DNA of 64,000 nucleotides from Paramacrobiotus metropolitanus. Taxonomy: Eukaryota > Tardigrada > Eutardigrada > Parachela > Macrobiotidae. The notes under the pieces were generated by a model, which had not been told where the DNA came from, did no database searches, and saw nothing but the letters and a program-made list of their open reading frames with translations. Positions 14,803 through 64,000 of this stretch are shown here, piece after piece. Each line of letters opens with the position of its first letter. The stretch's first letter is position 1. The stretch lies in the NCBI RefSeq assembly GCF_019649055.1, contig NW_026570295.1:372001-436000 (forward strand), given 5' to 3'. The position numbers and the translations under genes were made by a program.

Positions 14803-14966
14803 ATGAGGCGGACGTGACCTTTGGACTGCTTGCTCGCTGAGTCGCTGTCGACCTCCGATCATGCGTTTCCTACATTGCACAGATTTTGTAAAAACGACCT
14901 GAAACTTTTGAACAATGAATGTGATCGCTGTACGAATGATGCTTTGAGCTTGATGGAAAAACAAGG

Positions 14967-14972
14967 AATAAA
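14967..14972 (+). terminator. Polyadenylation signal of the cuticle protein gene
   Basis: AATAAA stands 165 bases after the stop codon. The same signal and surrounding 3' UTR are kept in the truncated copy near 31.06 kb, which suggests this is the used signal. Confidence 0.7.
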
Positions 14973-17262: not shown

Positions 17263-17565
17263 CAATGTGTTATGCTGAATCACTAACTATCGTCCATACA
17301 GTAAATATTACGTACTAAATTTCAATTCTAACATGTTTTTCCGCAGATTTTCTCTTGGCTAAGTAAAGAAGAATGCAATCCATAAATCTGTTGTTGATGT
17401 ATCAGTGAATGCATTTGCTGAAACAAATTAAAAAAAAGGAATAAAATTGTCTGCCAAACATACAGGGCCGTGAATTTCAACTCGTTCCAAAACTTAGAAT
17501 CACATTTTAGTTTAGCAAAATAAAACGTTTCGAAGGGATTATTAGCAGGTTAGAAGGCGACTTAC

Positions 17566-21993: not shown

Positions 21994-22289
21994 CTGTTGA
22001 GAATAAAACACTCACTGTATTCAAAGTTCATAATAAAAGTAATAAGTGGAAAATTATCTGCAACTGATTTTTAACAATATTCATACACAGCCATTAGCCG
22101 CATAGAAAAATCGTTAGTAAAATAAAAAAATTAACAAAAACTGGTAAAATGAACGAAAAATACATATCAAATACAAGGCATATATTCTACTATTAAATAC
22201 AACTATACAAGTACTTGCAGTAATAATAATAAATCAAAATTTTTTACGAAACCTTTGTAACCCGCTTTCTGAAATAAGTGTCACCGCAC

Positions 22290-27189: not shown

Positions 27190-27330
27190 CCAGTGTTGTC
27201 ATTTCCTGCATAATACCATCCGCAATAAATTCGGCTTTGTTTCAAACGGTAAGCACATATCTAAGATTCTGCATGTGGAACATAAGCCAAACAGCTGATG
27301 GGCTTCAAATGTCAGTAGCACTAGCTTTCT
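27190..27330. repeat. Intron repeat shared with 52.78-52.90 kb
   Basis: About 130 bases match 52,779-52,905 (shared blocks TTCGGCTTTGTTT and CAACTGATGGG-like). The two copies sit in different, non-equivalent introns, so they look like a dispersed element rather than part of the gene duplication. Confidence 0.6.
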
Positions 27331-27399
27331 AAAGCGGACGGTGTTTCTGGTTTTTGGCTTATCTATCATAATAAGCTGTTGCCACTCGCATGTACGAGA

Positions 27400-27445
27400 T
27401 CGTAGTAAGATAATCGTAGCACTCGTAGTAAGATAATCGTAGCAC
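27400..27445. repeat. Perfect tandem duplication of a 23-base unit
   Basis: Two exact copies of a unit beginning TCGTAGTAAGATAATCG. A single related half-unit appears near 63,415 in the equivalent intron of the intact gene. Confidence 0.85.
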
Positions 27446-27954
27446 ATGGATTTTGAATTCTCACACCACGCGCCTAACAAATGCACTGTAAAATTACGGT
27501 AATCGCTTTTGTGTTCAAAACATCTTTTTTATCGACACCAGTTGATTAAAAATTATTTAATTAGTCTCGTTCATTTAATTAATAATTAGTTAGCTCATAT
27601 ATCATCGCACCTTGGTAAAGCTTTCCGACAATATCATCTAACCCCATACTGGTCAGCAAGTCGGAGTGTTCCGCGCGGAACACCAAATGCTCCGGTCCGT
27701 TCAAGCAGAAATACGCCTCCTGCTGAATCCACCGATTGGTATCCGTGGCCGGATCCGCGAAGGCGATCTCATCGTGCTCCAGCACCGAGGAGATGGCGTG
27801 CACCGAGAAGCGGTAGTGACTGATTGCGTTGGCGTGATTGACCCAAAAGGTCACCTTCCCGTAGGTCAATTCATCCGTCAGCGCGTTGATCTCCTCCGAC
27901 GTGCGCAGTTTGGCGGCGTACTCTTGCGCTGCCAGCGCCCTCCGATTCCGGATG

Positions 27955-32099: not shown

Positions 32100-33156
32100 C
32101 TACAGCGTCTCCTCGTCGAAGCCCTTGGTGCGGAAGGCGGCCACCGTCGGCTGCGAGGGCGGCGGCGTGCTCTGGCCGCTGGCGGGCGGCGGTGTTGGGG
32201 GTTTGCTGCTGTAGGCCGGCGGTTTGGACATGGTGGAGGTGCGCGTGGACATCTCGGTGAGCGGCGTCTCGGTGACGACGTGCTCCTCGTAGCTGCGGCC
32301 CTTGCGCTCGCGGCGCTTGCTGCGCAAGTGCAGCAGCGCGATGACCACGCCCAGCAGGACAAGAGCACCGGCCACCGAGCCCACGCTGATCAGCACGATG
32401 TCCTGTGTGCTGTAGGCCTGGGGTGCGCTCGTCGGTCGCACGACGATGGGCGGGGTGGTGGCGTTCGTCGTCGGTACTACACGAAAAAAATCGATTACTG
32501 AATACTGATCGCAAAATAAAATTTATTAAAATTCAAACCGAAAATTAATTTCATTAAAAATCAAAATCAAATTATTATTAAATTTGTTTGGACTGCAAAA
32601 TACACAAAAAAGAGAATAAATAATACAGTTGAAAAAACAAGGAAACAAATCTGGACCGACAACATGGGAACAAAGAGGGTAAGCAAAAATAATAACTGCA
32701 AAACCGAAACTGACCAAAGTTTAAAAATCCGGAAAGGTGTTAGCCAAAAATTCGAGTAAATCAATGCAATAGCAGCCGCAAGAAACAAAACGAAAATAAC
32801 TAATAAAAGCTTTTGAAACAAATAATTAACCGAAAATACGAGTACACCAAGAAAAATAATTACAATCGAAATTCATGGAGAGGGAAAAATTAAGAAAACA
32901 AACAGCGGTTAACTGCGCCAAACGATTTTACCATTACTCGAGCATATTCAGACGAAAAAACAAACTATTTTTTGGTGACAATCAATAAACGATTGCATAC
33001 CGGTTGTGGGAGTCGGCGGCTGTGACGTCACTGATGTTACCGTCGATCCGGAAGTTGCCGTCGGCCCGGATGTTATCGTCGACCCACTGGTGACCGTCGA
33101 GCCGGTGGTGACGGGAGGGACGGTGGTGGTCAAATTTTCCAGTTCCGCCACGAAGC
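32100..33156 (-). CDS. Stalk, transmembrane helix and cytoplasmic tail of the giant MAM protein (last two exons)
   Basis: Exon 33156-33001 encodes a Thr/Ser-rich stalk with near-repeats of TSGST, likely O-glycosylated. Exon 32476-32100 gives a short linker, a hydrophobic helix (DIVLISVGSVAGALVLLGVV plus about six residues), a basic stop-transfer stretch RSKRRERKGR, and about 75 tail residues. The tail has a PPAY motif (PPxY, a WW-domain ligand type), Pro-rich PxxP runs, several Ser/Thr, and ends FDEETL, which fits a class III PDZ ligand pattern. Together these set the orientation: MAM array outside, tail inside. Binding partners are inference from motifs. I see no convincing AATAAA directly downstream on the minus strand before 31.98 kb. 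Confidence 0.9.
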
Positions 33157-36100
33157 CTGCACAGAACCATAACGTTTAGTGCTGTTCCCCGTTTAATCAG
33201 CACGTTGCTTACCTTCTTCAGCCGAGTACCACGTGTCCGTCAGCGCGAACAACGCCGGTACGAGTCCCGGCTCCTGACGGTTCTGCACCTCCAGGACACT
33301 GACGCGGAACGTCTGCAATGCACAGCACAACCGTCAACTGCCGTCTGCCGGCAAAACCCTTAATCTGTTAAAAACATTCACCGCTACCTCTAATCAAAAA
33401 TATGCATTTCGGTAACCAGCTCTATAGCTGGACAAGCAAACGCCAATTAAAACAGATTAAAGTTGTGGTGAAGACACTATTTAACTTTTTAAATATATAA
33501 GGAATGTAGTTACATTAAAAACTTACTTTCGAAGCATCAACAATTAAATCAATCCCCACCAATCGCTTAGTAAATACGTTATTATGGACAGTTATTCTGC
33601 TTATTATTTTCTAATCTTAATAACAATTTTCTTATAATAAGTTTGGTTTTAAACGGTGATAAATTTCGCTGCTCATTTCGCTTTGTAAGCAACCTCACTG
33701 TAACCTTTATTAATCTGTTAAATATTGATAATAATTAAAGTAACTGATGTTGTGTCTCAAACAACCTTAACAAAAAAAATGCGAACGTACAATTCGGCTG
33801 GGCTGGTCGCTGGCGGGCAGCTCCACCACGGCGGAAGTCCAGCGTTCGAGGCTCTCCGTGGGCGCCAAGGGATAAGGCAGACTGTTGTTCCCGCCCACCA
33901 GGAGGTCCACCTGCAGGCGGGCGCGGGTGACCAGCATGTACTTGAAGGCAAAACTGGTCGGTTCCGGATGCGGCGGGATCTCCCCGCTGACGATCTGCAC
34001 GGGGCCGGCGGACAGCGCGTCGCCCAGGACGACCAGCGCGGTCTCGTGCGTGCCGGGCAGAACCTGGGTGGTGACGCCGGGCGGGGCCTGCCAGCCGCAG
34101 AAGGGCGCGCCGGGGGCGATGTCTTCGCAGGTCAGGGAATTAGGTCGATTGATCGGGCCGCAGTCCAGGGTGCTGTTCAGAGGGGTAAGGGAGGTGGCCT
34201 GGGATTCGCGGTTGATGATGATCTCGTCCACAGCGAATTCCGACGCGGAACCGGCTCTGCAGAATATTCATATTAATTTTTCTTGATAATTATACCTTTA
34301 ACAGGCAAAAGCATGAAAATTACAGGAAGTGTAACGCGCACACACTTAAACCCAGTTTAAAATTAAAGTTAAAATTTAAGAAAATAAATACTTAAAAAAA
34401 GCTTTTATATTTTATGGTAACCTTGTCCGAGCGAATGCCGACGCGAAACGGTCTCTGCAGCAATTTCAAGATGAATAAAAAAAGCACAATTTCAAAAAAA
34501 ATTTCCATTTTTTTACGCACATTTCTTATATTTTATTGAATTACATTCTATTTATATTTTCTTGTCAAAGAAATAAACAATTCAAATTTGAAAATCCGTT
34601 AAATTTATATTGTTTTCTTGAAACAACGTTGGCCGAAAATTTCTTTCTAAAATGTTACTACTATATTAAATTCTATTAGCACTCAGACGGACGGACGCGA
34701 ACATACAGTCTGTATGTGGCTGTTGTGTACGATGGTCGTCGTCAAAGCGCAGAATACTGAATATGAATACCGTTTACCGGTATCAAATTATCGTAGTATA
34801 AGGGATTCAGCCATAGTAACCAGGCTGACCAAGTTGCTGACAGCTGACAATTTGCTTAGCACATAAAATCAAACGCACTACACTTTGTTTTTACTTATGC
34901 ATACAGAAGAGGTAGAATGATTAATTATTCAAAGATCAAACACTGCGTGAAGCGTACATACCGAGCGAAATTGATTACTATTATCAATTTTCAAAAATCT
35001 TCATCTGTTTATTATTATGATTTTTTTAAATATTTTCCTTAATATTTTATGCACAAAAGTTCACAATTTTTATTATTTATAATTCTACTTACCCAGCGGT
35101 GACGCTGAACTCCAGCTGTACCAACGGCGAGAATCCCGGTACGCAAAGGGTCACTCGCCCGGGTATCCAGCGTCCGAACGCCATCCCGCCCAGAGCGGCA
35201 CTTCCGTGCAGTTCAAACAACACATCCGTCGAAGTAATCTGTCCATTGACGACATAATGCGCCTTCACCGTGAACACCTCCACATCCGCATGGGCGAAGT
35301 AGAAGAAGAACACCTGCATGCGTTCCCGCACGTAGAACCCACGCGACAACAGACTGGCGTGACGTTGCTGACTGTTCGGTTGGAACAGCGCCATGCCACC
35401 GCCCACGGAGGTCGTTATGTCCTCACTGGCGTCGGCAATTTTAAAGCCTTGATAACCGTAACCGCAGAAATGGGAATTGAAGGAACAGCTCAACGTCCCG
35501 GTGGGCAGGGGCGGCACCGGGGTGGTGACTGTCGGTCGTGTGGGGCGGCTGGTCGGCGGGGTCACCGGCGCCACGCTGGGACAGTTGTCGCCCAGAGTGA
35601 CCACTTCCGCTTCGTTGAACAAACGGATCTGGTCGATGGCGACGGTGGAGTCGGCGTCGGAGAAGGCCGCTTCCAGGATGAAGACGACGTTGGAGGAGGC
35701 GGGGACGGGGAGGGTGGGGTGCAGCCAGGTGTTGGATTGATCGTTGTTGCTGCTCCAGAGGACGGTCTCGTTGTTCGTGGCGTTGGAGAGGGATTTCAGT
35801 TGGACGTACTGGATGGAGGGGCCGTACAGGTGGACGAAGAACTCCAGGGAGGTGTCAGCGGAGACGGCCAGGCAGGGGGTGTACAGACGGGCTATACTCA
35901 AGTCCTGGTTGGGGATGCCGGTGGATTGGGCGTGGAACCGGCCGGATTTGCCGTTGTTCGGGTGGTCATGGTAATCAATACGGCTCGTCGAGCGGACCCA
36001 TCTGCACAAAAATCCAGAAAAATGCGCATTTATTACATTAATCAACACCATTTAGAGTGCACACATAGTATGACGGCCATTTAAAAATTAAATGCCCACA

Positions 36101-39100
36101 GCAGAATTCCATGCATTCGTTCAGGCATTAAATTGATTAATAAATAAATTTAATTAATTTGTAAAAATTTGGGAAATATTTGCACATAAACTGTCCATCT
36201 CCCCACAAAATTCGGAAGCTACAACAAATTTTACCTGTTGTTGTAGGGAGCGGCCCGGATGTCACTGAGCCATCCGCAGAAGCCGTCCTCGAAATGACAG
36301 CTGACCACGGGGCACAACCCGGGCACGGAGGCCGCCAGATTGTTCTCCCCGCGGTACCTGACGTCATCCACGGCAACCACGCTGTCCGGCATGGTGAAGG
36401 CCACCTCCATGATCAACTGCGCACCGACCTTCCCGCACACCGTCAACACGGCCTCCTTCCAGCCGGGAGCACTTCCGCCGCTGCGTTCCCACACAATCTC
36501 GTCCACCTCGTTCTGGCGGACGATCAGCCGGAAGTAGCGCAACTGGTAGGCCGCGATGTTGTACCAAAAGGTCACCTGCGTGTTGTGCGGCATGGCCGAG
36601 GTGATCGGGCGGCTCATGATGCGCGCCACGTTGTTGCTGCCGTTGATAGAGTTGGAGGATTGGGAAGCGAGATAGTTGGAGCCGTATTTGGCGCCGAGGA
36701 TGACGGCCGGTGGGGTGCCGATGGTGTCATTGACGATCTCGAAGTAGTTGCGGTAGTACAGGGCGTTCATCCAGCCGCAGTTGCCCGCTTCGAAATCACA
36801 AGTGATGGTGGTCTGTGGGGCGCCGGGGCAGGTGTAGGTGTCGGGAGGTACTTGGCCGGATAAACTCGCTTCGTTGTCTAACACGAAACCGTCCAGGCCA
36901 ACGGCGCTGTCGGCAGCCGCGAAGTTCGCCAAGAAGAACAGCTGCAAGGCGGAATATTGCTAGTTGCTCTGCCATTATTATTATTAATCGATTTAAGATT
37001 ACTGAAGCTGCACAATAACCGGTATGTGTTACAAGAACCATATTACGGGGTAGTTATTCATCAGTTTTATGGGGCTCATCAGGTTTGTATTACATTCTTA
37101 TATATTGTTCAGTTTAAGCGCTATATAATTGTAGGAATTATGTGCAATTACTATACAATTAGGGATTTTTCACGGATAATTTGATCATTACTGTTATCAT
37201 GAAGATAAACTAGTTCTACTCGTACAGTAATTACGGATTTGCAAAAGACTGTCGTCCACGAATATAACGTAGACAAGTGGCACGATGTTGTAGTTCAAAC
37301 ATGCAGGCAAAATCAATACGATCGAACTGCTTTCACATTGCACCTTAAAATTATGTCTGAAAACTATTTTTGTAAAAATGAAGTCTTAATATTCTGACCG
37401 CCTAACTGATCCGTTGATAACGATAGTTTGTGCAATCACCTCATCTTCAAACGCCGAAGAGCACACGTTGTACTCTGTAGTGCCACTGATTTTATTTGCG
37501 AGGAATTCGGGAAAATTACCGAGGTAGCCTGACTGATTCAGTGAGCGTTTATTGAGCAGCCAAGCCGAGTACAACAATTTTTTTATTGGGCAATGTTGTC
37601 ATTTGTTTTACGTTGCAACCAAACGTGAACGCGGAACCCGTTTCTTGTGATAATATATTACTACTTAGTACTACTCTTAAGGAATAATTATGGATGGAGA
37701 CTTACGGTGAAGGGGTTTTCATCGCACACGGTCACTTCCGCCATGCGCCAGCCAGTCAGACCGGTCTCCTCCGCCGTCCACAACACCTGTTCGTAGGTGC
37801 CATCGTAGCCCTTGTGGCCCTTGATCAGGCTCAATTGACGAACGGGCCCGTGCAAGAAGTAATAGAAAGTAAATTGAGTGGCGGCGCGCAGTTTGATCGT
37901 GTCGTATATACGCAACACCGGCGTGGCCGGCTCACTGTCCGCCGATTCTGCCTTGACATACCTATGCAATACACCGTGTTCAATTATCTTTATAAATTTT
38001 CTTGAAATAATCTACATAAAAAATACTTCATAAAAATCGGCAAAAAAATTATTATATAATAATAATTCTCAACAATAGTAAATAACCAAACGTCTCAAAA
38101 ACTATGCTTATTAATTCATGATATAATTCGTGATAAAATGTTCCACAATGCTTTTTTGATCAGTGTAATACAAATCTAAAATAAAGGGTTAAAATGGATA
38201 GCAACGAATAGAAACACTGGAAAAAAATAAAAAACATTAAAATATTAAAAAATATATAAAAACGTTAAAATATAAAAAAAACACAATTCTTACAAAAATA
38301 AATAAAATATAAAAAAAATTAACAATGAAGTGCCTTACCATGTTCCGAGCGCGGCATTCTGTCCGGCATCTTCGCGATAGCGATGGAAGCTGGTCTCTCT
38401 CCATCCACAGAAGCCGTCCTCGAAGCCGCACGTCACCAACGGCGAGCGACAGTAGCCGTCGATCTCGCCCGGCTGCACCGGCGCGGTCTCGCCGACCAGC
38501 ACGAAATCGTCGACGCTGACGTCCAGCGCCGTGGTCTCCAGCACCAGCTGGTAGCCCGGCTCGAAGCACAGGTACACCGTCGCCGTCTGCCACTGTAAAG
38601 TGGGCGTGGCGCGCCAAATTTCGTACTCTTCCTCGAAAATCTTCACGTTCAGTTTCAGGTAACCGCCGTGCACATCGCGCGGGAAGCGGTAGCGGAAGGT
38701 CAGCTTGGTGGGATTGGGCGGGAATTGGTTGACGTGCATGCTGATTAGGCGCGTCGCCGGGGCGGCTGCTGAGGCGTTGGTGGGGATGGTCGCCAAGAAG
38801 AAGTTGGAGGCATCTACAAAAAAATCCGTAAGTAATTGTTAAATCATATATTTATTCTGTAAATAATTGTATATTTTGTTTGTGAATTTAAGGCGATGGA
38901 CTAGTTTGTAAAATACCAATCTTTATAGCTACTTCGAAAATTGTTTGTGCACCTTGGTTTGAGCTGTTTTCGGAGTGTATGGGTTCATTAGAAAGCTCAT
39001 AAATCGCGCTTTTTAATAGACATAGTTTCAAAATCAACACTAACAGCATAAACGCGATAGAAATTTTTCTGTTGTGTGAGCATTAAAAAAATCTAAGCCA

Positions 39101-42100
39101 AGCACCAGATGGAACATCTTCAGGTCTGATGTTTTCAAATGGAACTTAAAATTATTTCACACACTGGGTTTATTCAGAAAAAATCTTGAATAAAAAGCTA
39201 GGAAGATACAAGTTTTTGAACATGGAACTAATTCTTCTTACGGAGAAAATCACTGAGCGTTGGAGTTCGAATGACTATATCGCAAAACCAAGAAAACCCA
39301 GTGTGTAGAATAATTTTTTCTTTCCAATGGTACCAAGGACGACCAATTCCATTGCGGCAGTGGAATGCAATACGCGTAAACTCTCCGAACTTTACTTCCA
39401 GTAAATCAAGGTTTTCGGGTTTTGCAAATGGTCCGCTGCATCGGTGGACCAGTTTGAGCAGATAACCACGCTACCTGCAGGCTGCGCATGGCGTTCATGA
39501 AATCGCCGCCTGCGCACGGCTGCAGCGGTACGCAGACACGCAGCCCGCGTGCGGTTGGGTATGCTTCGATTGAAACTGTGATGGCAGCTACGTGAATCGA
39601 ACCGTGCTGCTGCACCCCTCCGTCGTTTTGGACCCGCGGTACCTTTTGGTTTTAGACGGATTTGGGTTTCTGTTCTGTTCTTTGCTTCTCAAAAGACTTC
39701 TCATTTTAAAAAGCATTTTTTTCTGTTCTAGAAAATGTAGTTACTGTAACTTCTCTGGGGATGAAGCAAAACCAGTCTATCGCCTTAATTATGTATTTAT
39801 TCATATATACTAATTTATTTTCTTACCGATTTATGCATTTATTTATGTAGTTCTTTTATGTCTCTATTAAGATTTTATTTATGTTTATTCTTATATATTC
39901 CACGTAGATTTGATTCTGTATTTGATTATGAATTAAAGGGAAACTGAATGTTGCGTACTGTTGATCCAATTCCATGTGATGCCGCTGCCGGACTGGATGT
40001 CCCATCCGCAGATGTAGTTGGTCGGCTCGTCGGTCTGGAAGTCACATGTCACCGTGTGGTCGAACTTCTGCGGTGGACACTGCTGCTCGGGGCCTAATAA
40101 ATCTATAAAATAACTGCATTATAATACAAATATATTCAAAGTCAATAAAGGTATTATTTAGCGCACAATAATGAAACTGATTCGAAATCTTCTAGTAATA
40201 TCTAATTCTGCCTCCACAACATTGTGAAACTGCTGTACAACTGGTTAAGTGCTTTGGCACCAATTTACGACAGATTGGTAGAATAGAGGCACAAGTTGGA
40301 TACATCCATTGGCGTCGGCCGCATTGCTAGCATGACAGATTGTTTGAACATTGACAGAAATTGTATAGAAACTTCGCCCATTCCCTGTCTAGCAGAACTC
40401 CCGTTTAATTTTTATTTAAAAATTTGTTTTAATTTAAATTTGTCTCCATCAGTCTCATTTAAGTATACTAAACTATGGCACAAATTAATTAAATTACCGG
40501 GGCGTGCCGTGGTGACCACCTCATCCAGCGCAGCGATCGTGAAGTGTCGCTCGGACGGTGTTAAACGGAAGACCACCGTCATGAGCTGTGCCGTATCGAA
40601 GCAGCCCTGGACGCTGGCGTGGCGCCAGTAGCGGTGCACCGCATCGTTGTCGGTGGTGTGCGTCACCGTCCAGAGGGTGCCCTCCTTCGCCGGGTCCTCG
40701 AAATGTTCGCCCTGCGGTTTACTGATCACCTCCAGGGTGGCGGTGCCCTGGCCGAACAGGTACCAGAAGTCCATGACGAAGGCGTGGCTGCCGTTGCGGT
40801 TGGCGCGGAACACCGGCGTCTCCAGTTCGGCGTAGCGGTCGTGCTGATTGTGGATGGTTTCCTCCACGAAGGCGAATCCCTCTCCTATTCACAGTAACGG
40901 AAATAAATGAAACAGAACATATTATTCACATACACCAGAGCGATAACATATATATCTTTATATTAAATATGTATTAATTATTTAATAATTAATATTTAGC
41001 AATCAGATATGTATTATTATTAGCAATTTATTAAATGTATTAAATAGCGCGTACCACGGAACGGCTGAACACCGGCGTGCGAATGATTGGCGGTCTGCCA
41101 GTGTAATAATCCCAACGAGCTCCATCCCGCGCACAATCCATCATCGAACGAACAGGAATATTCCTGCAACGGGGGCCGTGTCACCGGCGGCCGAGTGGAC
41201 ACCGTCGGGGTGACCGTGGAGGTTGGTGGGCGGGTCGTGGGGAACGTCTGTGTGGGGCGGAATGTGCTTCCTACATAATCCCCATAAATAAATTAAAATA
41301 TACAAAAAAGGAATAATCAGGTGCGACGTACCGGTCTCGCTTTCCAGGCTGATCTCGTCGATGCCGGTCCAGCTGTCGAGGCGGGTGAAGTGGGTCTCCA
41401 GGATCAGCTGACAACGGCTGGCGTCGGCGCCGTCCGCCTGTCGGATGCTGATGACCGCGCGTTGCCATTGGCCGATGTCGCCGTGGCCGGTGTGCCAGAC
41501 GGAGGTGACAGGGAAGGCGTCGCTGACGGCCAAGTAAGCGCTGATACCTTGCACGAATCGTCCGCTGGTTCGATAGTAAAACTAAAGCAGAATGTGACTT
41601 CTCACGTAGCTGTCATGGCTGAACATTTACAGATAGAGCCCGGAAATAAAACACTACGCAAATTCAGTTAAATTAAATTATTTACCTAAATGTGGTGCCC
41701 TGTTATTTTAACCGGCCTTGCGGAAATCTCATACATAAATTTGCGATTTTAGTATATTTTTTAAATGTACAGCCATTTCCGCAAATTTAAACTTTTATTC
41801 AGTTTGTTTTTTATTTATTTCAAATGTCATGGTTGAAAGCTCGTAGACACTGTATACATATTCACGGTTTTATTGAATTTTTAAATTTAGTCTAAAGGTC
41901 ATTCCCAACCACTACCGGGATCTATTGCATACCTCAATGTTAAATGGCTGACTGCAGTCGGAATCCAGATTGGCACTCATCAGGCGCGCCACGCGGCTGG
42001 TGGATGTGGGCTGCGCTGCGGCAAAGTAGCGTCCGCGGTAAGCTTCCGGGATCTCGGCGATACCGCTGCCGACGCTCTCCACCACGCGCCACTTGGAATT

Positions 42101-54100: not shown

Positions 54101-57100
54101 TGAAATTTTCCGCGTGACTCCACGCGCAGAAATTCCGGTCGAAACTGCAGCTCATCGTGTGACTGGCCGGGGTAATGGGCGGTAGGGGGCGGTCGGCGGG
54201 GTACGCTGGACAATCATCCGCTAAGGTCAAGCGTTCGGCTTCGTTTAGCAATTTGATCTTGTCGATCCCGACCACGCCCATGGAGGCGGTGAAGGCCGCT
54301 TCCAGGACGAGGCGGACGCTGCCGGTGACGCCGACGGTGATTTCGGGGCGCAGCCAGACGCCGGGGGCGCCTTCCTGCTGCCAGAGGATAGATTCCTGGC
54401 CGTTGGGATGGAAGGCCTTGAGGGTGAGGTACTCGATGCCCTGGCCGTACTCGTGGTGCCAGAAGTTCATGGGGGTGCTGCCCTGGATCCGGATGCAGGG
54501 ACTGATCAAGCGGGCAAAGGTCAGGTGGCCGTTGCGGGCGCCTTGGGACTCCACGTGCCAGAAGCCGTCGGGGGTGGCTTCGTAGTGGTCGAACTCTTCT
54601 AGGAGGGCATTCGATCGACTCCAGCTACAAATCATGTCAATGTTAGGATATGAAGATACCGGGTAAAAATACAGTAGAGTTACAATACCCAATCAGATAA
54701 ACAATACAATTCCAAAATCAAATCGATTTTTTAGTGCTACAAAATTATTTTTACATTTATCGTAATATTTAAAATTATTTTTTGAAAATATTCCAATTTC
54801 AAAAAATAATTTGAAAATTATTAATTAACGGTAATAGTAATAAGCGCAGCACATAAATACATTTTAGAAACCAATTAACGATAAAATAATTCCGATAGCT
54901 AAATCTGAGAAGACGGATAAAAATGCAAAAAAATACTGATTTTAAAATAAAAACACATTTTCCGATTCGAATTACGATGTAAAACAGGCAGTACGAGTAT
55001 GAAAATTTGAAACAATGTTAAATTCAGCTCAAGTAAATAATCAGTTAAGATTGTTTGTGGAAATTCCAACACCGATACATACCTGGAAGCGGCGGTCTGA
55101 TGATTCTCCCATCCGCACATATCGTGCTCGAAATTGCAGCTGACCAGCGGACATGTTCCCGGCCAGGCGTCCTCCGTATTCTGCTCTCCCACATACCTCA
55201 CCTCGTCGATATCCACCTGATGATCCCCTTCTTCGAACGCCGTCTCAAAGACGAACGAAAAGCCGGACATGCGCGGGCACACGGTGAATTTGGTCCAGAT
55301 CCAGTCGGCGCCCTGAGCGCCGTTGCGCTCCCACAGCACCTGATCGCTGGCCGGTTCGCGCAGGATCACCCGCAGATACTTAATACCGTTGCTGGGCATC
55401 CGGTAGCCGAACATGAAGTGCGTGTTGCGCGGCATGGCCGAGGTCACAGGGCGGCTGGTGATGCGTGCAATGGCGCCGTCGAAGGGCGCGTCGCGGGACT
55501 GCGCCGTCATATAGTGCTCGCCGCCGTCGCCGGGCGGTTGGATGTGCCAGTCGATGCCCAGACCGTTGTTGGTCCAGCCGCACAGGTCGCTCTCGAAGTC
55601 GCAGCTGATGGTCGTCACGGTCTGGCCGGGGCACAGGAAGGTGTCGGGCGGGATGGCGCCCGAGATGGCGCCTTCGTCTTCCAGCTCGAGGGCGTCGAAG
55701 GCGACGACGTAGTCCGGCAGAATGAAGCCGGCGGAAAATTCCAGCTGTTAAGAAAAAACTACATTATGCATCCAAACTTTCTATTCCCAACAGTGAGTTA
55801 CAGATTAAATATTTGATCCAAAGCAGAAGTAATAGATAGGTAAAAGGTCACTTGAATTAAATTAAGCACACTGATTCAGCCATTGAAACTGTACTCCTGT
55901 TCATACGTATAATTACTATAATAATATGAAGTTATGAACTACAGCATAAAATGATTAATCTGAATATTAACAAATTTTTTCCCAATCATGACCATTTTTT
56001 CGCTTTTTCTAGAAAAACTGAAAGCAACCGTTCACTATCGATCGCTCCCGTACAATACAATACTCGAAAATAGGCATCAAAAGCAAGAAATTACTATTCG
56101 AGATTCGGATATATTAGCATTGTCAGTATTTTTTTACGTACATAAAATTCCGCTGAGTCGCACAAGACAACTTCCGCTCGCTTCCACTGATCGGTATTTC
56201 CTCCAGTCTCTTCCCACAACACATCAAACTCTATTCCATTCATGCCCAATTTCGTCTTGGTCAGTCTGACAAAATTCACTCCGTGTCCGCGTGCGTGGTA
56301 CCAGAAGGAGAATTTTCCGTCGCGCGCCAACTTGACCGCGCCGTTGGCCACCAAGCGGGCCACTTCATCGCTATCCTGCCGCTGATTGGCCGCGGCATAC
56401 ACGAACCACGTACCCTGGGCAGCACTTCCAATCACGCCGCTATCAACAGCATTCTCGACGGTCTGTGCGCGGCGGAAGCGCAGATTCTTTCCGATCTGTA
56501 GGACGAAAAATAATTACATTTTGTACGCATTGTGTTAATCTGCGGCTGAAACAAATTAATTTTTCCACATCATTACTTTCTAATAAAACATTGTAAGCTA
56601 AGGATCAATAAAAACTCGACAAAAAGCAGCAGACAGAACAACAGAAAAGAACAAGAAACCATTCATTTTAATCATTCCATTGCCTGAAAACTGTATTGAA
56701 GTTTTCGAAAAAATGCTAAAAACAAATTTTGAGTTTCAAATCCTATTTTATTTCTAATGAAATTTCGGTTCACGTCGTTTGAACAACGCAACAAAAGATG
56801 CTTGAAGTCTGCCCATAGACTACGGTAATGGTGATACGATGGGCCATAAAAGTTTACGTCCAGGATTTAATTCCTAGGAGGGGCCACAGTTTTTATCTCA
56901 TAAACCAAAAAATGCCTAAAATTTTCCAAATTTCACAATGAAAAGTTCTAACTGCCTGATAAGGTCATAATTTCATTTGGTGTAGACTGAGCAAGGATCT
57001 AGCTACTGTAATAAATCTAATAACACTCACCTCGGTGGTCCAGCCGCACATGCCATCCTCGAAATCACACGTCAAAATCGGCGACGGACACTGCGGATTA

Positions 57101-60100
57101 AACCCGGGCGGGGCCGGTTCGATCTCCCCGGTCAACTCGATATCGTCCACCTGCACACCCGCCACCGTGGACTCGAAGACCAGCTGGTAGCCCGGGTCCT
57201 GGCAGATGACGACGTCCATTCGCTGCCACGTGGTGGTGTTGCTGCGGGGCGCGTGCCAGATCTCGTGCTCTTGATCGAAAACCTTCACTTTAAGCTTGGT
57301 GGTTCCGTGGCCGCCTTCGGGGTTCCCGTAGTAGAAGGACAGGCGGGTGGGGTTGGGTACCTGTTGGGAGGCGTAGTTTTGAAGTAATTTCTAAATCATT
57401 TCTCAAATTAAATTCAAAGGTCAGTTGTTCCCAGCTTCACGAACCACAAAGCCACCTCGATTTTAAAGCGGTTCGATTTAGAGAAAGCGATGTGCAACGC
57501 TTAGAGGTCTGATTTCAGCCTTACCTGCTGGTGGATGGTGTCGGAGATCAAGCGGGCGGTGCCGGACACTTGCCAGACGTTGTCGGACTGGGTGGCCATG
57601 AAGTAGCTGCCGGCCACGCGGGTGCGTCGCCAGTTGAGGCCGATGGATTCTTCGTTGTGCCAGCCGCAGGTGCCGCTCTCGAAGCCGCAGGTAACGTCGG
57701 CGTACTGCAGGCTTTCGCAGGTGTGCGGCCCCACTGTAAACAACATTTCAACATGATAAAGTGCGTCCTGTCAGGTGAACGTAAATAAGCATGCCACTGG
57801 GTGTTTATCACCACTCTTAAAGCATGCGTAAATCTTTATTTCCAGTCGTCTCATATCATAACCGCAATGGAAGGGAGCAGAACAGTGCAAAATCACCTAC
57901 CGTACAATATTACAGATACACGCGGCGGTCATCTACAGGAAATATCATAGAGAAAGGGAATTGGATCGACAGCGAACGATACCCCATGAACGAGATTCAT
58001 TTTGCATAAGAAACAAACTTTTTTTGCGTTACTAATTATTCTTCAGTTTCACATTGATAAAATCACGGCCACCTCTTCTACATGTGTACATACTTTGACT
58101 GCGCTTGTACAAGCTAACGGTATAAACATACCAATCAGACGGTAAAAAAAAATTCGTTTCTTTTATTTTTGATTCAAATGAAGGCAATCAGCGTATCAGC
58201 AGTTATTCTTCCTACACCTAGAATACTGTTCTGTTGGAGACAGTGCCACTTTTCTACAAAAGCATCTTAACCACAGTATCACCTGTTGCGTTGTATACTA
58301 ACATGTTATTATTATATTACTGGCTTACCGTTGTTGCGGGTGGTGATGACCTCGTCCAGTCCGACATGCGCAAACGTGTTGCTGGGGGTGACGCGGAAGA
58401 CCAGTGATCGCGTGTCTTCGAAGCAGAGGCGCACGGTGACCTGGCGCCAGCGTCGCTGGTAGTTGGCGGAGACGCTGTGCGTCACTTTCCACACACTGTT
58501 CTCCTCCGGCTGGTCGTTCCACCACTCGTCGGCGCTCTTGCTGTATACTTGGAAGGTGGCCGTGCCGTAGCCGAAGTAGTACCAGAAGGACAGCGTCGCC
58601 GAGCGCGTGTGGTTGTGGCTGGCGTCGTTGGCGGTAAACGCCGGGCTCTGCAGTTCCGCGAAGCGGCCCTCCGCGCTCAGGATGCCCTCGTTCTCCACGT
58701 AGACGAATCCATGACCTGTGATCAGGCGCATTATAGGCCAGGGTCAAAATAACAAAAATATCGAAAACATAAATTCAAAAAATTCCTATCAAACTACTGA
58801 GCAAAAATCGAGAAAATTAATACAGCGACACGAACGTAAACAATTACTGAGCCACCAATTAGAACGAAACTATTCAAATAATCATTAATATGGAGACACC
58901 GTCAATACTGCAAAAGCTGATTACTAATGAATGAAAATTATCTTTCCGATAACAGGTTACAAAAAGAAGTAAAAACCCAGGAATCAATAAAAATAAATGG
59001 ATAGTTTAATAAACCACCGATTAAATGAAAAATAATTTCTTTCTAACGTACCGGCTTGCGGTGAAACACCGATGGGATCAGCGACACTCTCGTGCCACTT
59101 GTAGAAACCCGGTGACATCCATCCGCTGCAGAAGCCGACATCGAAGGAGCACGTGCCTTCCTCGATGACTTCCATGGTCGGATCCATCGTCGTCAAGCTA
59201 ATCGGCGTTGTACCAAGCGTAACTCCTACGACAAACCAATCACTCAAACCCGGCCGCACGGACATTTTAAACGGGTTTACCATTCTCCAGATGCAGTTGG
59301 AAGGAATCCACTGCGCTCCACGTGTTGGGACGGAGGAAGCGCGTCTCCAGCATCAATCGGCAGGGCAGTCGGCCGTTGCACTCGCGGATGGAGAAGACGG
59401 TGCGAGCGCGCGTCCACTGACCCACGACGCCGCTGTCGCTGGTGAAGACGGGGCTGTCGGGGATCTGGCTGCCCTGGACGAGGTACACGGCGATGCCGGT
59501 CGAGCCGCGTCCGCTGGTTTGGTAGAAAAACTAATCGCAAATAGCCCTTTTACAGAACGGTTAATTTTTGTGATGCTGTTTAATGCTGTTTAATTTTTGT
59601 GATTTATTCGTATTTTAATGGCTCCCAAATCATATATGTAAAGTCGGAAAATGCTTTTTGTAATTTTACAGGTTTCTCTTTTAATTTCGATTTACTTGAA
59701 AATGGTTTCCTACACCGCTTTGTGCTTTATTTTCATATTTTTCAGGGAATCGATCTTATTAATTCGACGGTTATGGGATAATTTATTGCTTATATTTTTA
59801 CACAAATTACGGAGTGATTTTCGCTGGTCAGCAGTTACAAACCCTTCTTAATTAAGCTTAATTTATTCTGAAATTAAGAAAATGCTTGCAATTTGATACA
59901 AAAACGTAAGCCCTTCAAAATATTCTTACCGTATTTAAATGTTTTCTTCGCTTACCTCAATTTCCAGTTCTTCCTTGAAATCAAACGCATTAAACGTCGG
60001 ACTGATCATCCTGGCCAACGTCAGTCCCGTAGCGTTGCCCACGCGTGCCACAGCGTATGCACCGTTGTGAGCGGCGTCCACCGCAACTGGATCGTTGTTA

Positions 60101-63100
60101 GCGGTGGTCCAGGGTAGAGCGTTGGGGACGTTGCGCCAGTCACACAAATTGCCGTCGAATTCACAGCTGATGTTTCCTTCGTGGTTCGGTGCTACACAAA
60201 TCAAATCATCAGCATCTGATAGTCCGAAATACAGCGAGAAAGCAGCTTACGCAACGTCAGGACGGTGGTCATCGTGGTGGTGGGTTCGGGAGTGGTCGTC
60301 CGGGTTCCGGCCGTCACGGTGCTGACGCCCGCGGGGGTGGTGTGTTGCGGCAGGATGGCGCAGGATAAATTGGACATTAATTGGTTGTCCGTGCGCATCA
60401 CGACGTCGTCTAACCCGATTAGGAATCCCGGCGCGGAAAACACCGCTTCGAACGACAACTAAAAAAATGAAAAGGTATAACACAGTATAAAACCAAAACA
60501 GTCAAATTAAATATTTATATTTAAAAAAGTTGCTTAAAATTTAAAAGCTTTCGTTATAAAATCTGATGCAACCGAAGCGCAAATTTTTAGGGCTTTTCGG
60601 CACGGTCATTGAAGACATATACCCGGCTTTTGGCCACTAGACTACAGAAACAACGCTACTGTATAACACAGCACGATACAGAACTGAAAACAGTTCAAAA
60701 TTTATAAAGCTACGGCGAAATTTCGGTTTACTCAAAGCCATTAATTTATAAAAATAAACTTAAACATTTATGAAAATTTATTTAAACACTTCAGACCATA
60801 ACGACAGAAAAAACATTAACCAAGCATGTTTTCATGGCACGACATTTTCCCGCACATCCGGAATTCTTTAATTTAATTTACGTAATTTAATTTAATTTTC
60901 CAATTTAATTTACGTACCACGAAAGTCTCATTGAAGCAGATCTCGATGGAGGCCATCTGCCAGCCGCGATGCGAGGGCCCGGTCTCCCACAGTTGGAAGC
61001 GACCGCTGGCGGTCTCCCCAAACAACGACAGCGAGGCCACCCCGTATCCGTAGGCGTGGAAGCGCACCGACATGAAGCCGTGGTAGGGGACGAAGGATTT
61101 GGACTTGAGGACGGCCGGCCGGTTCAGCGCCCACAGATTGCTGTCGACGTAGACGTACGTCTCGTTGTCGGGAGCCACGATGGCGTACCCGTCCAGACCG
61201 GTGGTCCCGGTGCCGATCTGCCAGCCCAGGAACATGTCGTCCGACGTCCAGCCGCACAACGTGTGCTCGAAGTCACACGTCAAGAAGGATTCGCATTCGG
61301 TTTCGGTGCCTGGATAAAATGAACTAATTTATTTCTTTTACTTTTGTAAGTTTTTTAGTTCACTTGATTGTCCATGTTTTTGTCTGAATATTCTATACTT
61401 GGTAGCGGGCAAATTTCGACTTCACCACCAGTTTATACTGCAAAGTTTTCATCATTAACGTGACATGGTGATTGAGCAGGAGACACCCCTATTCCGGCCC
61501 CTGCACTACGGTCTATGTGATACAACAGCAATATGGTCTATGTGATATTACAACGTACCGGTGTTCCATTTTCGTGACGCTCTACATGCAGCAGTTTTTC
61601 GGAACCATTTTAAAATAAAAGCAGACAATAAGAATTGGCAAACAGGAATTAAAGAACGGAAAAGATTTGTTCGGTAACTGCAAAAACAACCTGCGGCTTT
61701 TTTTAAATTTAAATTAATCGCATTTGTATGCTTATCTGAGTTGGCAAAGAACGACCTGCATATAACTTCAGCCACTAAACCACGACAGCAATATTATGGC
61801 CTCGCAACTGTAAGCTTCGGAATTTCAATTTCCGCGGCACTCGACATATTTTTGGTATGATTTCGAAGAAAGACAATAAAAATCAGCAAGTAAAATTGAG
61901 GATAAAATCAACAGGTTTCGTGACTTTAAAGATACCGAAGATTTGCGAATTATTTTCGATTATCTTTTTTACATTATTGTTCGATTTTTTTCGATTTATT
62001 AAAAAATTTTTTATTGCGAATTATTTTTATTTTTTGCTAATTATGTTTAATTATTTTTCTAATTATTTTTTATTAAATTTTTTCTAATTTTACAAATACG
62101 CTGATATTTCGATCAATTTCATTCCAAGTAAATTGCTTCATAAAACAGTTGTTATACTGTAAATAATACAATACGTGAAAAGGGCAAAACTGACCTTCTT
62201 CAACGGAAACGGAGTCAATGGCCACGGGGGTGCCGCACCGGCTGTGTTCGGCGACAAAGGTCACGTGGAAGCCGATGTCGGCCTCGAAATGCGCTTCGGC
62301 GTACCGCCAGCGCCCCGACTGGCCCTGATCGACGTTCCAGATGACCACGGTGTTGAGGATGGTGGTCAGGTACACCTGCAGGTACTTGTTGTCGCCGCGG
62401 ATATTGTTGAAGTAGTACCAAAAGGTCACGCGTCCGTGGAAGGTCTTCCCGTCCTCCACTTGTACATTCGGGCCGTCCAGCTCACTGATCAGCTCCTGCG
62501 GTTGGTCGGGCACCGCGGGACGGATGGTGCAGTTAGTCATCGCGTAACCGGAAGCTGGATGACACAAAATACAACGTTACCAATTTTTCAAGTAACAAAG
62601 TTCTTAATTTCTCTAATTTTCCGTCACCGCGTTTCTCATTTTTCAGTTAACAAATCTGGCACAGTTTTTTTTTTAAAAATCGTTTAGTCTTTATTTATTA
62701 GTCATTTTTCAATTCGCTCATAAATTTGTCGAGTGATCATATGTTTTGCATTTTGTGTTCCCTGTTTCTGTTTTTTTAAATTTTATTGTTATTATTATTT
62801 ATACGGTGTAGTGTTTACATGGTTGGTCGTCAGGAATTCCGGCGCCGGTCTCGACGGGCCCGTTTCCGAAGACGAACGGTAGGTAGAAGCCCAAGGATCC
62901 CCAGCCGTCGCAGATGCCCGTGTCAAAGGAGCAGGAGGCGCCCGGCAGCGGCGACCAGCTGTAGCAGTCACCGTGCGGTTCGGGAGTGACCAGCGGGAAG
63001 CGGGTGCTGGCCTCGGTGGTCACTGGCGCGTCCGTCGGCATGGGACACACCGGATTGCCCACTGGTTCTGTAAAAATTTAACAAATTTCCCCTTTACAAA

Positions 63101-64000
63101 TTATGCAGAAGCGTAAACTGTACTGCGGTGATTTAGATACGAGTATTATTAGCCTCCACGACCAGCTACTTCACTGTATCAATGTACAGAAATGTCAACA
63201 ATGTTACGATGTCTTTCCTTACCATTTAAAAGGGTTTTATGTTACACATATAAACGTATAAAATGGGGACGCGTATTTGTACTGAACCATTTCCGTTTTA
63301 CATATTCATGGAATACAAGGCCATACAGCACCATCTGTTCATACATTGTAATTCGCTTACTTTTATTGTCTCGTTTTATCATAATGCAAAGTCGTCGTCC
63401 GTATGGAACATAGATAATCGTAGCATACAGGCTGTGGACACACACACCCATTACACATCTATCGGACTGACCTTATAAATGTAATATCCGCTTGAATAAA
63501 TGTACAACTTTTTTCATTAGTACCAGTAATTAGCTACAAAAATATTAATTGATTACCATCATTCCTGTGAATAATAACCAATTAGTTAATAATCATTGTA
63601 CCTCGGTAAAGCTCTCCAACAATATCATCCAAGCCGATGCTGGTCAGCACGTCGGAATGTTCGGCGCGGAACACCAAATGTCCGGGCCCGTTCAAGCAGA
63701 AATACGCCTCCTGTTGAATCCAGCGATTGGTATCCGTGGCCGGGTCCGCGAAGGCAATTTCATCGTGCTCCAACACCGAGGAAATAGCGTGCACCGAAAA
63801 GCGGTAGTGACTGACCGCGTTGGCGTGATTGACCCAAAAGGTCACCTTCCCGTAGGTCAGTTCATCAGTCAGCGCGTTGATCTCCTCCGTGCGCAGTTTG
63901 GCGGCGTACTCCCGCCCCCCGAAACTGAGGGTGCTGTAGACGAAGCCGGAGCCCTGGTGGGCGCCGGCGCTGATCAAGGGGGCGGAGTCGTTGGTGTGCT
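32100..64000 (-). CDS. Giant multi-MAM-domain type I transmembrane protein (5' end outside window)
   Basis: Forty-three exons, read 5' to 3' on the minus strand: 64000-63602, 63067-62819, 62554-62195, 61309-60918, 60458-60251, 60191-59956, 59530-59281, 59225-59052, 58715-58329, 57733-57525, 57360-57031, 56495-56142, 55744-55083, 54624-53800, 53714-53246, 52164-52023, 51962-51553, 50994-50802, 50421-50147, 49695-48939, 48255-47849, 47760-47568, 47048-46816, 46348-46105, 45776-45615, 45387-45016, 44665-44486, 44040-43663, 43176-42773, 42712-42529, 42183-41933, 41581-41332, 41270-41055, 40884-40498, 40093-39959, 38813-38339, 37961-37706, 36941-36235, 36001-35093, 34256-33791, 33312-33213, 33156-33001, 32476-32100. 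Every junction uses GT/AG and keeps phase; the stop is TAG at 32102-32100. The protein in the window is about 4,906 residues: 26 complete MAM-like domains plus a partial one, stalk, membrane helix, tail. MAM domains are extracellular beta-sandwich modules of adhesion proteins and receptors. A cell-surface adhesion role is inferred. Signal peptide and start lie beyond the right edge. Confidence 0.9.
33213..36001 (-). CDS. MAM domains types g, h and i, block 4 (three exons)
   Basis: Exons 36001-35093 (909 nt), 34256-33791 and 33312-33213. Domain g ends VAIDQIRLFNEAE; h opens LSCSFNSHFCGY, with Tyr instead of the usual Trp; i opens TCEDIAPGAPFCGW, a strongly altered start. The last, 100-nt exon encodes FALTDTWYSAEEGF and was placed by splice sites and phase; its acceptor TTGCAG and donor GTAAGC are good. 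The 836-base intron 34257-35092 has a partial duplicate of the 34256 exon start near 34.45 kb. The intron 33313-33790 is AT-rich. Confidence 0.86.
36235..40093 (-). CDS. MAM domains types d, e and f, block 4 (four exons)
   Basis: Exons 40093-39959, 38813-38339, 37961-37706 and 36941-36235. Openings: TCDFQTDEPTNYICGW (d, with a five-residue insertion), TCGFEDGFCGW (e, first Cys context altered), TCDFEAGNCGW (f); the last exon starts the next domain with SCHFEDGFCGW. The first three exons cover the same protein as block 1 exons 57733-56142 (866 against 893 nt) but are cut at different places: the introns are phase 1 and phase 2 instead of phase 0. Long introns lie at 38814-39958 (1,145 bases, with a GC-rich open island near 39.5 kb) and 36942-37705 (764 bases, no gene seen). 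Confidence 0.88.
38814..39958. other. Longest intron of the intact MAM gene, with a GC-rich open island
   Basis: Intron between exons 40093-39959 and 38813-38339; its equivalent in block 1 is only 164 bases. At 39,470-39,585 the minus strand has a GC-rich open stretch (IEAYPTARGLRVCVPLQPC) flanked by CAG on its 5' side and CAG/GTAGCG on its 3' side. Including it would not fit the MAM domain, because exon 40093-39959 joins 38813-38339 directly in phase. Origin unknown. Confidence 0.5.
40498..41270 (-). CDS. MAM domain type c, block 4 (exons 41270-41055 and 40884-40498)
   Basis: A long Pro/Thr linker, then SCSFDDGLCAGW; the second exon begins GEGFAFVEET, with core FVMDFWYLFGQGTATLEVI and end IAALDEVVTTARPG. 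The 387-nt second exon equals the block 1 c exon in length. Phase 1-1-1. The following intron (40094-40497) shows no gene. Confidence 0.88.
41332..42183 (-). CDS. MAM domain type b, block 4 (exons 42183-41933 and 41581-41332)
   Basis: The first exon opens SCDFENNTLCSW and ends FNIE; it is fully open although it has few Met codons. The second starts FYYRTSGRFVQGISAYL and ends IDEISLESETG. The second exon is 250 nt, the same as its block 1 counterpart (59530-59281) and its copy B counterpart (15906-15657). Copy B also keeps the first exon (16519-16272). The intron 41582-41932 is AT-rich. Confidence 0.87.
42529..43176 (-). CDS. MAM domain type a, block 4 (exons 43176-42773 and 42712-42529)
   Basis: Opens SCTFDDGDTCEW, with Glu in place of the usual Gly; core FFFYYRAFGTGIASVYLY, then CLNEPFK joined to LEFEGIFAARDFVIGLDAF and a Pro/Thr linker. 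Phase 1-0-1. This begins the second full nine-domain series, which runs to 33.2 kb in 13 exons like the first. Confidence 0.88.
43663..44665 (-). CDS. MAM domain type z, second copy (exons 44665-44486 and 44040-43663)
   Basis: Opens ECDFEDGLCEGW; the second exon begins GDSFLVNHCFF, has core GRISFWYYSHGQFPATNNLG and the stretch GRWNYVHQTAIIPKG, and closes IVDEIVIER. Its closest relative in this gene by eye is the z domain at 63067-62195, which shares FWYY and GRW.Y in matching places. Block 3 therefore runs a-b-c-z rather than a-b-c-d. Eroded copies of both exons lie at 7,625-7,800 and 6,463-6,772. The introns 43177-43662 and 44666-45015 are AT-rich and empty as far as I can see. Confidence 0.87.
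45016..45776 (-). CDS. MAM domain type c, block 3 (exons 45776-45615 and 45387-45016)
   Basis: Linker, then TCSFDVGLCEGW in the first exon; the second starts GRGYMYVDEVKD, with core KMTFWYRAGPGAATLEVLL and end YLALDEVLTI. Both outer junctions and the inner one are phase 1, as in the other split c cassettes. Confidence 0.87.
46105..47048 (-). CDS. MAM domain type b, block 3 (exons 47048-46816 and 46348-46105)
   Basis: Opens SCSFEANNLCAW; the first exon ends HQLSFQ and the second begins FYYRVNDRGSTGVSLY, ending with FVAIDDIILHAETG. Layout is phase 1-0-1. Decayed copies of both exons lie in the left part of the window (10,990-11,172 for the first; 7,876-8,098 and 10,240-10,302 for the second). 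The introns 46349-46815 and 47049-47567 show no gene. Confidence 0.87.
47568..48255 (-). CDS. MAM domain type a, block 3 (exons 48255-47849 and 47760-47568)
   Basis: Opens TCDFEDFETCGW; core SVLSFSYRAYGHGIHSLQLF; then CFNDPVK joined to LAFEARFNSRGFYIGLDHVV and a Pro/Thr linker. The 193-nt second exon has the same length as its block 2 counterpart (50994-50802) and its copy B counterpart (17758-17566). The 683-base intron upstream (48256-48938) is AT-rich and includes a short stretch resembling a tRNA B box, which I do not call a tRNA. Confidence 0.88.
48939..50421 (-). CDS. MAM domains types b and c, short block 2, with a fused exon
   Basis: Exons 50421-50147 and 49695-48939. The first opens domain b (SCDFGEGSHADMCGW). 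The second, 757 nt, starts FFYRTSGRNV like the second exon of every b domain, then runs straight through the linker, the c opening TCSFDVGLCPGW and the whole c domain (VEVTFWYLLGPGTQLELQ, AAIDEVISTKSDG). In the other three b-c pairs this stretch is split by two introns. The same fused form is present in copy B (18911-19674), so the fusion predates that duplication. Confidence 0.88.
50802..51962 (-). CDS. MAM domain type a, short block 2 (exons 51962-51553 and 50994-50802)
   Basis: Opens TCDFQCGATCGW; core SSMAFAYRAFGHGIKHLRLY, then LLWETGD and CFNDPVV. The second exon starts LVFEAQFNARGFYVAIDHV and ends in a Thr/Pro linker. The layout is phase 1-0-1, as in the other a cassettes. The counterpart in copy B (21300 to about 21690, and 20729-20906) has a one-base deletion over the first cysteine. 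The 558-base intron 50995-51552 contains two copies of a recurring short motif (51202-51219 and 51427-51443). Confidence 0.88.
52023..54624 (-). CDS. MAM domains types g, h and i, block 1 (three exons)
   Basis: Exons 54624-53800 (825 nt), 53714-53246 and 52164-52023. Domain g finishes with VGIDKIKLLNEAE, domain h opens MSCSFDRNFCAW, and domain i opens SCDFGSSQCGW. The last exon was found by reading phase and splice sites: acceptor TTGTAG before ATGCGATTT, donor GTACGT after ATTATTACTG. It encodes the end of domain i with FALDDVWYSTEEGF, matching FALTDTWYSAEEGF in the last MAM exon near 33.2 kb. It also carries an RSKR motif (52125-52114). The 1,081-base intron 52165-53245 has a piece shared with 27.2 kb. 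Confidence 0.85.
52779..52905. repeat. Intron repeat shared with 27.19-27.33 kb
   Basis: Lies in the 1,081-base intron between the last two exons of block 1. Same orientation as its partner. No terminal inverted repeats are obvious. Confidence 0.6.
55083..57733 (-). CDS. MAM domains types d, e and f, block 1 (four exons)
   Basis: Exons 57733-57525, 57360-57031, 56495-56142 and 55744-55083. Openings are TCGFESGTCGW (d), TCDFEDGMCGW (e) and SCDFESDLCGW (f); the last exon also starts the next domain with SCNFEHDMCGW. Domain e has a clear MAM core, FSFWYHARGHGVNFVRL. Domain boundaries fall inside exons here, unlike the a-b-c part, and the junctions at 57525/57360 and 57031/56495 are phase 0. The introns before exons 56495 (535 bases) and 55744 (397 bases) hold no gene I can support. 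Confidence 0.88.
58329..59225 (-). CDS. MAM domain type c, block 1 (exons 59225-59052 and 58715-58329)
   Basis: The first exon carries a Thr/Pro linker and the opening TCSFDVGFCSGW. The second begins GHGFVYVENEG, has the core SATLSFWYYFGYGTATFQVY, and ends with VGLDEVITT. This is the closest to a textbook MAM core in the gene. The exon of 387 bases has a same-length counterpart at 40884-40498. Both ends are phase 1. Copy B keeps the second exon at 24699-25081 with a net loss of 4 bases. Confidence 0.88.
59281..60191 (-). CDS. MAM domain type b, block 1 (exons 60191-59956 and 59530-59281)
   Basis: The opening motif is SCEFDGNLCDW. Type b domains have Asp, Ala or Ser in place of the usual Gly before the Trp. 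The first exon ends with EELEIE and the second starts with FFYQTSGRGS, a motif that marks this domain type (also at 49695, 46348 and 41581). The domain closes with VDSFQLHLENG. The intron inside the domain is phase 0 and the exit is phase 1. The 425-base intron 59531-59955 is AT-rich with nothing recognisable. Confidence 0.87.
60251..61309 (-). CDS. MAM domain type a, block 1 (exons 61309-60918 and 60458-60251)
   Basis: The first exon opens with CDFEHTLCGW and carries the MAM core (SVRFHAYGYGVASLSLF, then LWETG). The second begins LSFEAVF and ends the domain with GFLIGLDDVVM, followed by a Thr/Pro-rich linker of about 30 residues. The intron between them is phase 0 and the outer introns are phase 1, so the pair is a symmetric 1-1 cassette. 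Similar a cassettes with the same split occur at 51962-50802, 48255-47568 and 43176-42529. The upstream intron, 61310-62194 (885 bases), contains a copy of a stretch also seen near 25.5 kb, in the related intron of copy B. Confidence 0.88.
62195..64000 (-). CDS. MAM gene exons 1-3 in window: partial MAM (type y) and complete MAM (type z)
   Basis: Exon 1 (64000-63602) enters mid-domain and carries the second half of a MAM domain, with core motifs GKVTFW and GLDDIV. Exon 2 (63067-62819) has a Pro/Thr linker, then the domain-opening motif SCSFDTGICDGW. Exon 3 (62554-62195) completes that domain with GRVTFWYYF and VAIDSVSVEE. Junctions are phase 1, matching the other linker junctions in the gene. 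Copy B keeps counterparts at 27611 onward, 26906-27153 and 26060-26418. The 535-base intron 63068-63601 contains no ORF I would support. The 264-base intron 62555-62818 is AT-rich. Confidence 0.88.

What the first reader, a model, noticed from the sequence alone, without database searches (positions are those of the whole stretch)
32100..64000. An intact, very large receptor-like protein built almost only of MAM domains
All 43 hand-placed exons join in phase, and the coding total closes exactly on the stop codon (14,723 nt = 2 leading bases + 4,907 codons). The result is 26 complete MAM-like domains with no other extracellular domain type seen, plus stalk, one membrane helix and a signalling-type tail. 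Known MAM proteins usually carry one to several MAM domains mixed with other modules; a near-pure array of this length would be unusual. The 5' end is still missing, so the protein is larger.
Basis: partly seen in the sequence, partly recalled or inferred. Interest (0 to 1): 0.8.

Follow-up and report, generated by a model that had tools for sequence, protein, structure and literature searches.

The report
Giant membrane protein of 31 MAM domains
An animal genome carries an apparently intact gene for a roughly 5,700-residue cell-surface protein whose outside part is almost nothing but 31 copies of one adhesion-type domain (MAM), an extreme version of a known kind of protein whose closest published relatives mix this domain with others.

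Summary
The gene runs on beyond the window. In all, 53 exons join in phase, 52 of 52 introns are GT-AG, there is no internal stop, and there are 31 MAM-like domains. A candidate first exon at 69470-69413 would give 5,697 aa; it is unproven. Pfam MAM matches 26 of 31 domains. Foldseek puts a model of domain 12 nearest to solved MAM domains. One membrane helix is followed by a 76-residue tail with PPAY and no Pfam domain. No LDL-receptor A match lies on this contig (not exhaustive). The array grew by block duplication: domains 6-15 match 22-31 in order, with two more copies of triad 7-9 between. Copies on both sides are broken, this gene is open, and dN/dS against them is about 0.2. I read it as a long adhesion or matrix-linking receptor; function is inferred, and there are no transcript data. 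Nearest published giants are coral MAM plus LDL-receptor proteins. New variant of a known kind.

The parts
32100..64000 (-). Part of the giant MAM gene inside the window: 43 exons, 14,723 nt. The model continues to 68826 in window numbering (C75:440826); candidate first exon 69470-69413.
63602..64000 (-). Inside part of exon 11 (64229-63602), most of MAM domain 5 (first cysteine at 64058, outside).
52023..62933 (-). Ten-domain block A: MAM domains 6-15.
   Evidence: same order as domains 22-31; 0 of 20,000 order shuffles reach the observed score
45016..51924 (-). Two extra triads, domains 16-17-18 and 19-20-21, matching 7-8-9 and 23-24-25.
   Evidence: pairwise scores; tree support starred only for 8+17+20+24 (and 8+17)
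33213..44621 (-). Ten-domain block B: MAM domains 22-31.
   Evidence: intron positions agree with block A except in 10/26 and partly 11/27
33001..33156 (-). Exon 52: start of the Ser/Thr/Pro-rich stalk after domain 31.
32331..32399 (-). Single transmembrane helix (23 residues, peak 19-residue hydropathy 2.64).
32103..32330 (-). 76-residue cytoplasmic tail, basic next to the membrane, proline-rich, PPAY at 32222-32211.
32100..32102 (-). Stop codon; an ATTAAA begins at 31955, 145 nt further on.
139..30670 (-). Fragments of a broken second copy of the gene, same strand, partly out of order.
   Evidence: tblastn, 139-30661; 26 of 53 exons matched at >=75% identity, 19 of these 26 with a frameshift gap or stop

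Best explanation
It is one intact gene for a type I membrane glycoprotein of about 5,700 residues. Order: probable signal peptide, 31 tandem MAM domains (several joined by Thr/Pro-rich spacers), a Ser/Thr/Pro-rich stalk, one membrane helix, a 76-residue tail with PPxY. Shown by sequence: open frame, splicing pattern, domain identity, membrane helix, block duplication, broken sister copies. Inferred: the MAM array works as a very long, multivalent adhesive rod that holds the cell surface to matrix, cuticle or other cells through many weak MAM contacts. The non-catalytic tail would link or regulate it through WW-domain proteins rather than by enzyme activity.
For: 53 exons in phase, 52 of 52 GT-AG introns, no internal stop. 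PF00629 in 26 of 31 domains. A profile of the 31 domains matches 20 PDB sequences at E<=0.001: 18 are from MAM proteins (neuropilins, MDGA1, enteropeptidase, SR-C, RPTPs, meprins, and 8a28, titled LAST-MAM), 2 are gingipain-type proteases. A model of domain 12 (pLDDT 71.8, pTM 0.74) matches the neuropilin-1 MAM domain best, Foldseek E 1e-6, TMq 0.67. One strong hydrophobic segment near the C-terminus. No LDLa match on C75 among 149 genome matches (150 of 292 candidates scored). Helix plus tail found at 2 places, here (100%) and in the inverted copy (99%). dN/dS against neighbouring copies 0.20 and 0.19 (simple site-counting method). 43 N-glycosylation sequons. An adhesive function of MAM domains is stated in PMC1325057 (passages) and is otherwise recalled.
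Against: No transcript or protein data. The first exon is a candidate, and no 19-residue window of the candidate signal peptide exceeds hydropathy 1.6; another candidate donor scores higher (6.9 against 5.4). Five of 31 domains miss Pfam at E<=0.01; D31 and D22 are weak in the leave-one-out test. dN/dS was measured against partly broken copies, so it shows past constraint, not present function. Adhesion, WW binding and ligand are not tested.
Confidence: 0.8

Rival explanations
1. Two or more neighbouring genes, or alternative transcripts ending inside the array, read as one. Domain 15, the repeat-partner of the membrane-proximal domain 31, would mark an old gene end.
For: Domains 6-15 repeat 22-31, so an old gene-end boundary could exist after domain 15. 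No transcript evidence is available.
Against: No in-frame stop in 17,036 nt; intron 26 after domain 15 is 60 nt, too short for stalk and membrane exons; one strong membrane helix; the helix-plus-tail exon matches only here and in the inverted copy.
Confidence: 0.1
2. A member of the MAM plus LDL-receptor A (MALRD / endotubin / coral skeletal-matrix) family that has lost its LDLa domains.
For: Tandem MAM, large size and a membrane anchor are shared with the coral proteins.
Against: No LDLa match on C75 (not exhaustive); none of the 31 domains matches a Pfam family other than MAM and, once, CBM_4_9. FN3, EGF and trefoil were not searched separately. A MAM array on C4 lies beside an LDLa match (C4:650599-650700) and is a better candidate for that family.
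Confidence: 0.2
3. A decaying gene: the locus has several broken copies and this one may be a young pseudogene.
For: Neighbouring copies are broken (19 of 26 and 14 of 30 matched exons).
Against: All 53 exons of this model are open with GT-AG introns, and changes between copies are mostly synonymous per site (dN/dS about 0.2).
Confidence: 0.05

Closest known systems
[quoted passage not shown] A. digitifera homologue)
   Same: Very large, long MAM repeat; the A. digitifera protein is classed as transmembrane (PMC4043741 and PMC4890752, passages).
   Different: MAM there is mixed with LDL-receptor repeats, fibronectin, EGF and trefoil domains (PMC4890752); no such family matched in the 31 domains scanned here.
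MAMDC2
   Same: Described as a signal sequence plus four consecutive MAM domains (PMC7507446, passages).
   Different: Four domains, 686 aa, putatively secreted; here 31 domains with a membrane anchor and tail.
Zonadhesin and zonadhesin-like proteins
   Same: MAM domains with mucin-type stretches; zonadhesin has one membrane helix and a short tail (PMC1325057, passages).
   Different: Two or three MAM domains in the fish and chicken cases seen, with VWD domains; no VWD match in the 31 domains scanned here.
RPTP kappa/mu, neuropilin, meprin
   Same: MAM domains that match by profile and, for domain 12, by fold.
   Different: One MAM domain each with other modules, and catalytic tails in RPTPs (recalled).

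Membership tests
MAM domain (PF00629) | Match to the Pfam MAM profile | tested here: met
   26 of 31 domains at E<=0.01, best 7e-19; exons of this gene also pass the curated cut-off in the genome scan
MAM domain (PF00629) | MAM beta-sandwich fold | tested here: met
   one domain only (D12): pLDDT 71.8 with residues 1-17 under 50; 44 Foldseek matches at E<=0.001, the top six from MAM proteins, later ones include carbohydrate-binding modules
MAM domain (PF00629) | Four conserved cysteines (recalled) | tested here: inconclusive
   first two cysteines invariant in 31 of 31; within 150 residues 7 domains have 2 cysteines, 17 have 3, 7 have 4; a further cysteine often lies in the next linker
MAM and LDL-receptor A proteins (MALRD type) | LDLa domains between MAM domains | tested here: not met
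   no LDLa match on C75 among 149 matches (150 of 292 candidates scored, so not exhaustive); none in the 31 domains
Receptor protein tyrosine phosphatases / receptor kinases | Catalytic cytoplasmic domain | tested here: not met
   last exon (124 aa) has no Pfam family at E<=0.01
MAMDC2-type MAM-only secreted proteins | MAM only, no membrane anchor | tested here: not met
   transmembrane helix at 32399-32331

The most novel reading that the evidence does not exclude
A separate class of giant, near-pure MAM adhesion receptor, assembled by whole-block duplication and kept in a fast birth-and-death locus (one open copy with broken copies on both sides in the 131 kb studied). Array length and domain set would vary between individuals or species and set the specificity of cell recognition, as with large hypervariable recognition receptors.
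Probability: 0.12. Interest if true: 0.7.

Novelty: new variant of a known kind. Interest (0 to 1): 0.45.

Why it matters
Giant receptors of one repeated domain type are known mainly for cadherin, Ig, FN3 and similar modules (recalled). A 31-fold near-pure MAM array is an extreme of a domain usually present in one to a few copies. It gives a natural test of whether MAM domains alone can build a long multivalent adhesion rod. The ordered blocks with mostly shared intron positions also make it a clean case of how such arrays grow.

Tried and rejected
Self-training the splice matrices with a light intron penalty collapsed into 245 mostly tiny exons; replaced by a heavier penalty and matrices trained on exons of 90 nt or more. 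Reading the + strand at 84-131 kb as one intact second gene was rejected: the model joins fragments, and 14 of 30 matched exons are broken. The first dN/dS run included weak cross-domain hits; hits under 75% identity were dropped (3 of 29 and 4 of 34), and ratios moved from 0.24 and 0.23 to 0.20 and 0.19. Naming the organism failed: no COX1 match in the assembly, the SSU rRNA search gave no answer, lipocalin matches were not diagnostic. A CBM_14 neighbour hints at an ecdysozoan; a tardigrade was only a recalled guess from genome size. CBM_4_9 in 1 of 31 domains (E 0.0064) was taken as fold similarity to MAM. Eight answered paper searches listed no account of a pure MAM array of this size; I read passages of four papers, not whole texts, and most subscription papers are not in that library.

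Full report
The window is C75:372001-436000 of a 169.8 Mb assembly of 533 contigs. The gene lies on the minus strand. A codon-and-splice Viterbi decoder was trained on long open frames and refined. Four exons were then changed, three 5' exons added and the decoder's weak first exon dropped, by splice scores and by how other copies of the domain are split. These are judgement calls. The result has 53 exons, 17,036 nt, no internal stop and 52 of 52 GT-AG introns of median length 364 nt.

Domains. Cutting at the first cysteine of the C-x-F...C-G-W motif gives 31 units. Of 465 domain pairs, 291 score above the best of 300 shuffled comparisons. Pfam MAM matches 26 of 31 at E<=0.01. Each of the 31 is found by a profile of the other 30; D31 is the weakest. 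The profile of all 31 against the PDB returns 20 sequences at E<=0.001; 18 are from MAM proteins and 2 are gingipain-type proteases. An AlphaFold model of domain 12 has mean pLDDT 71.8 with a poor first 17 residues. Its six best PDB matches are from MAM proteins; carbohydrate-binding modules of similar beta-sandwich fold come next. Besides MAM, one family (CBM_4_9) matched 1 of 31 domains. LDLa matches elsewhere in the genome number 149, none on C75; only 150 of 292 candidates were scored. The whole protein was not scanned as one piece, so parts of linkers and stalk were not tested.

Ends. Exon 68826-68680 begins inside what looks like a signal peptide. A candidate first exon (69470-69413, donor score 5.4) gives basic residues, a hydrophobic stretch and AHA before the first domain, total 5,697 aa. 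It was picked by this look among six candidates from three donors; another donor (69141) scores 6.9, and no 19-residue window of the peptide exceeds hydropathy 1.6. It is not proven. At the other end there is one helix (peak hydropathy 2.64) and a 76-residue tail with PPAY; the last exon has no Pfam family at E<=0.01. Two internal windows reach 1.63-1.64 and lie inside MAM domains 4 and 7.

How the array grew. Mean pairwise score at a spacing of 16 domains is 156.5, against 67.9 for all pairs; the next best of 25 spacings (12) has 84.6. Domains 6-15 match 22-31 in order, and 0 of 20,000 shuffles of the order reach that score. Triads 16-18 and 19-21 match 7-9 and 23-25 by score. The tree stars 7 of 28 inner branches, among them 13+29, 14+30, 10+26, 15+31 (flagged as a long-branch join) and 8+17+20+24. 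It does not resolve 7, 16, 19 and 23 into one group, and 9+18+21+25 and 11+27 are below the star. Intron positions agree between partners 6/22, 7/23, 8/24, 9/25, 13/29, 14/30 and 15/31 within a few to 17 residues, and 12 and 28 have none; 10/26 disagree and 11/27 agree only in part.

Locus. Fragments of a same-strand copy lie at 139-30670 and + strand copies at about C75:460-496 kb. At >=75% identity 26 and 30 of 53 exons are matched; 19 and 14 of these carry frameshift gaps or stops; dN/dS is 0.20 and 0.19. The + strand exons 45-53 (8 pass the cut, 2 broken) have dN/dS 0.13. So the gene stands open among decaying relatives, and the divergence shows past selective constraint.

Meaning. An adhesive function of MAM domains is stated in PMC1325057 (passages) and is otherwise recalled. 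A long array on a membrane stalk with a non-catalytic PPxY tail fits a multivalent adhesion or matrix-linking receptor; this is inference. The nearest published giants are coral proteins with long MAM and LDL-receptor repeats plus other modules (passages). MAMDC2 has four MAM domains and no other named module (passages). Eight searches in the held library listed no near-pure array of this length. The organism is unknown to me, so an existing database entry for this protein cannot be ruled out.

Noticed in passing
window 139-30670, minus strand: Fragments of a broken second copy of the MAM gene in the same orientation, some out of order.
   Followed up: partly
C75:460000-496200, + strand (L003-L007): Inverted copies, more than one for some exons; exons 45-53 with membrane helix and tail are close to the main gene (tail 99% identical), others are fragments.
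   Followed up: partly
G000:C4:628255-650700, + strand (L008-L011): A second MAM array with an LDLa match at 650599-650700, a likely MAM plus LDL-receptor A gene; its exons score poorly under this gene's codon table.
   Followed up: partly
L001 and L002 (C75:445000-453000), minus strand: Upstream neighbours: peptides from the spliced model match 7tm_1 (E 6e-16) and CBM_14 (E 1e-9); three single exons tried alone matched nothing.
   Followed up: partly
window 13097-15421 and 30757-31503: Stretches repeated several times across the 131 kb studied (about 71-82% identity), also near the chitin-binding gene; possibly mobile or duplicated elements.
   Followed up: no
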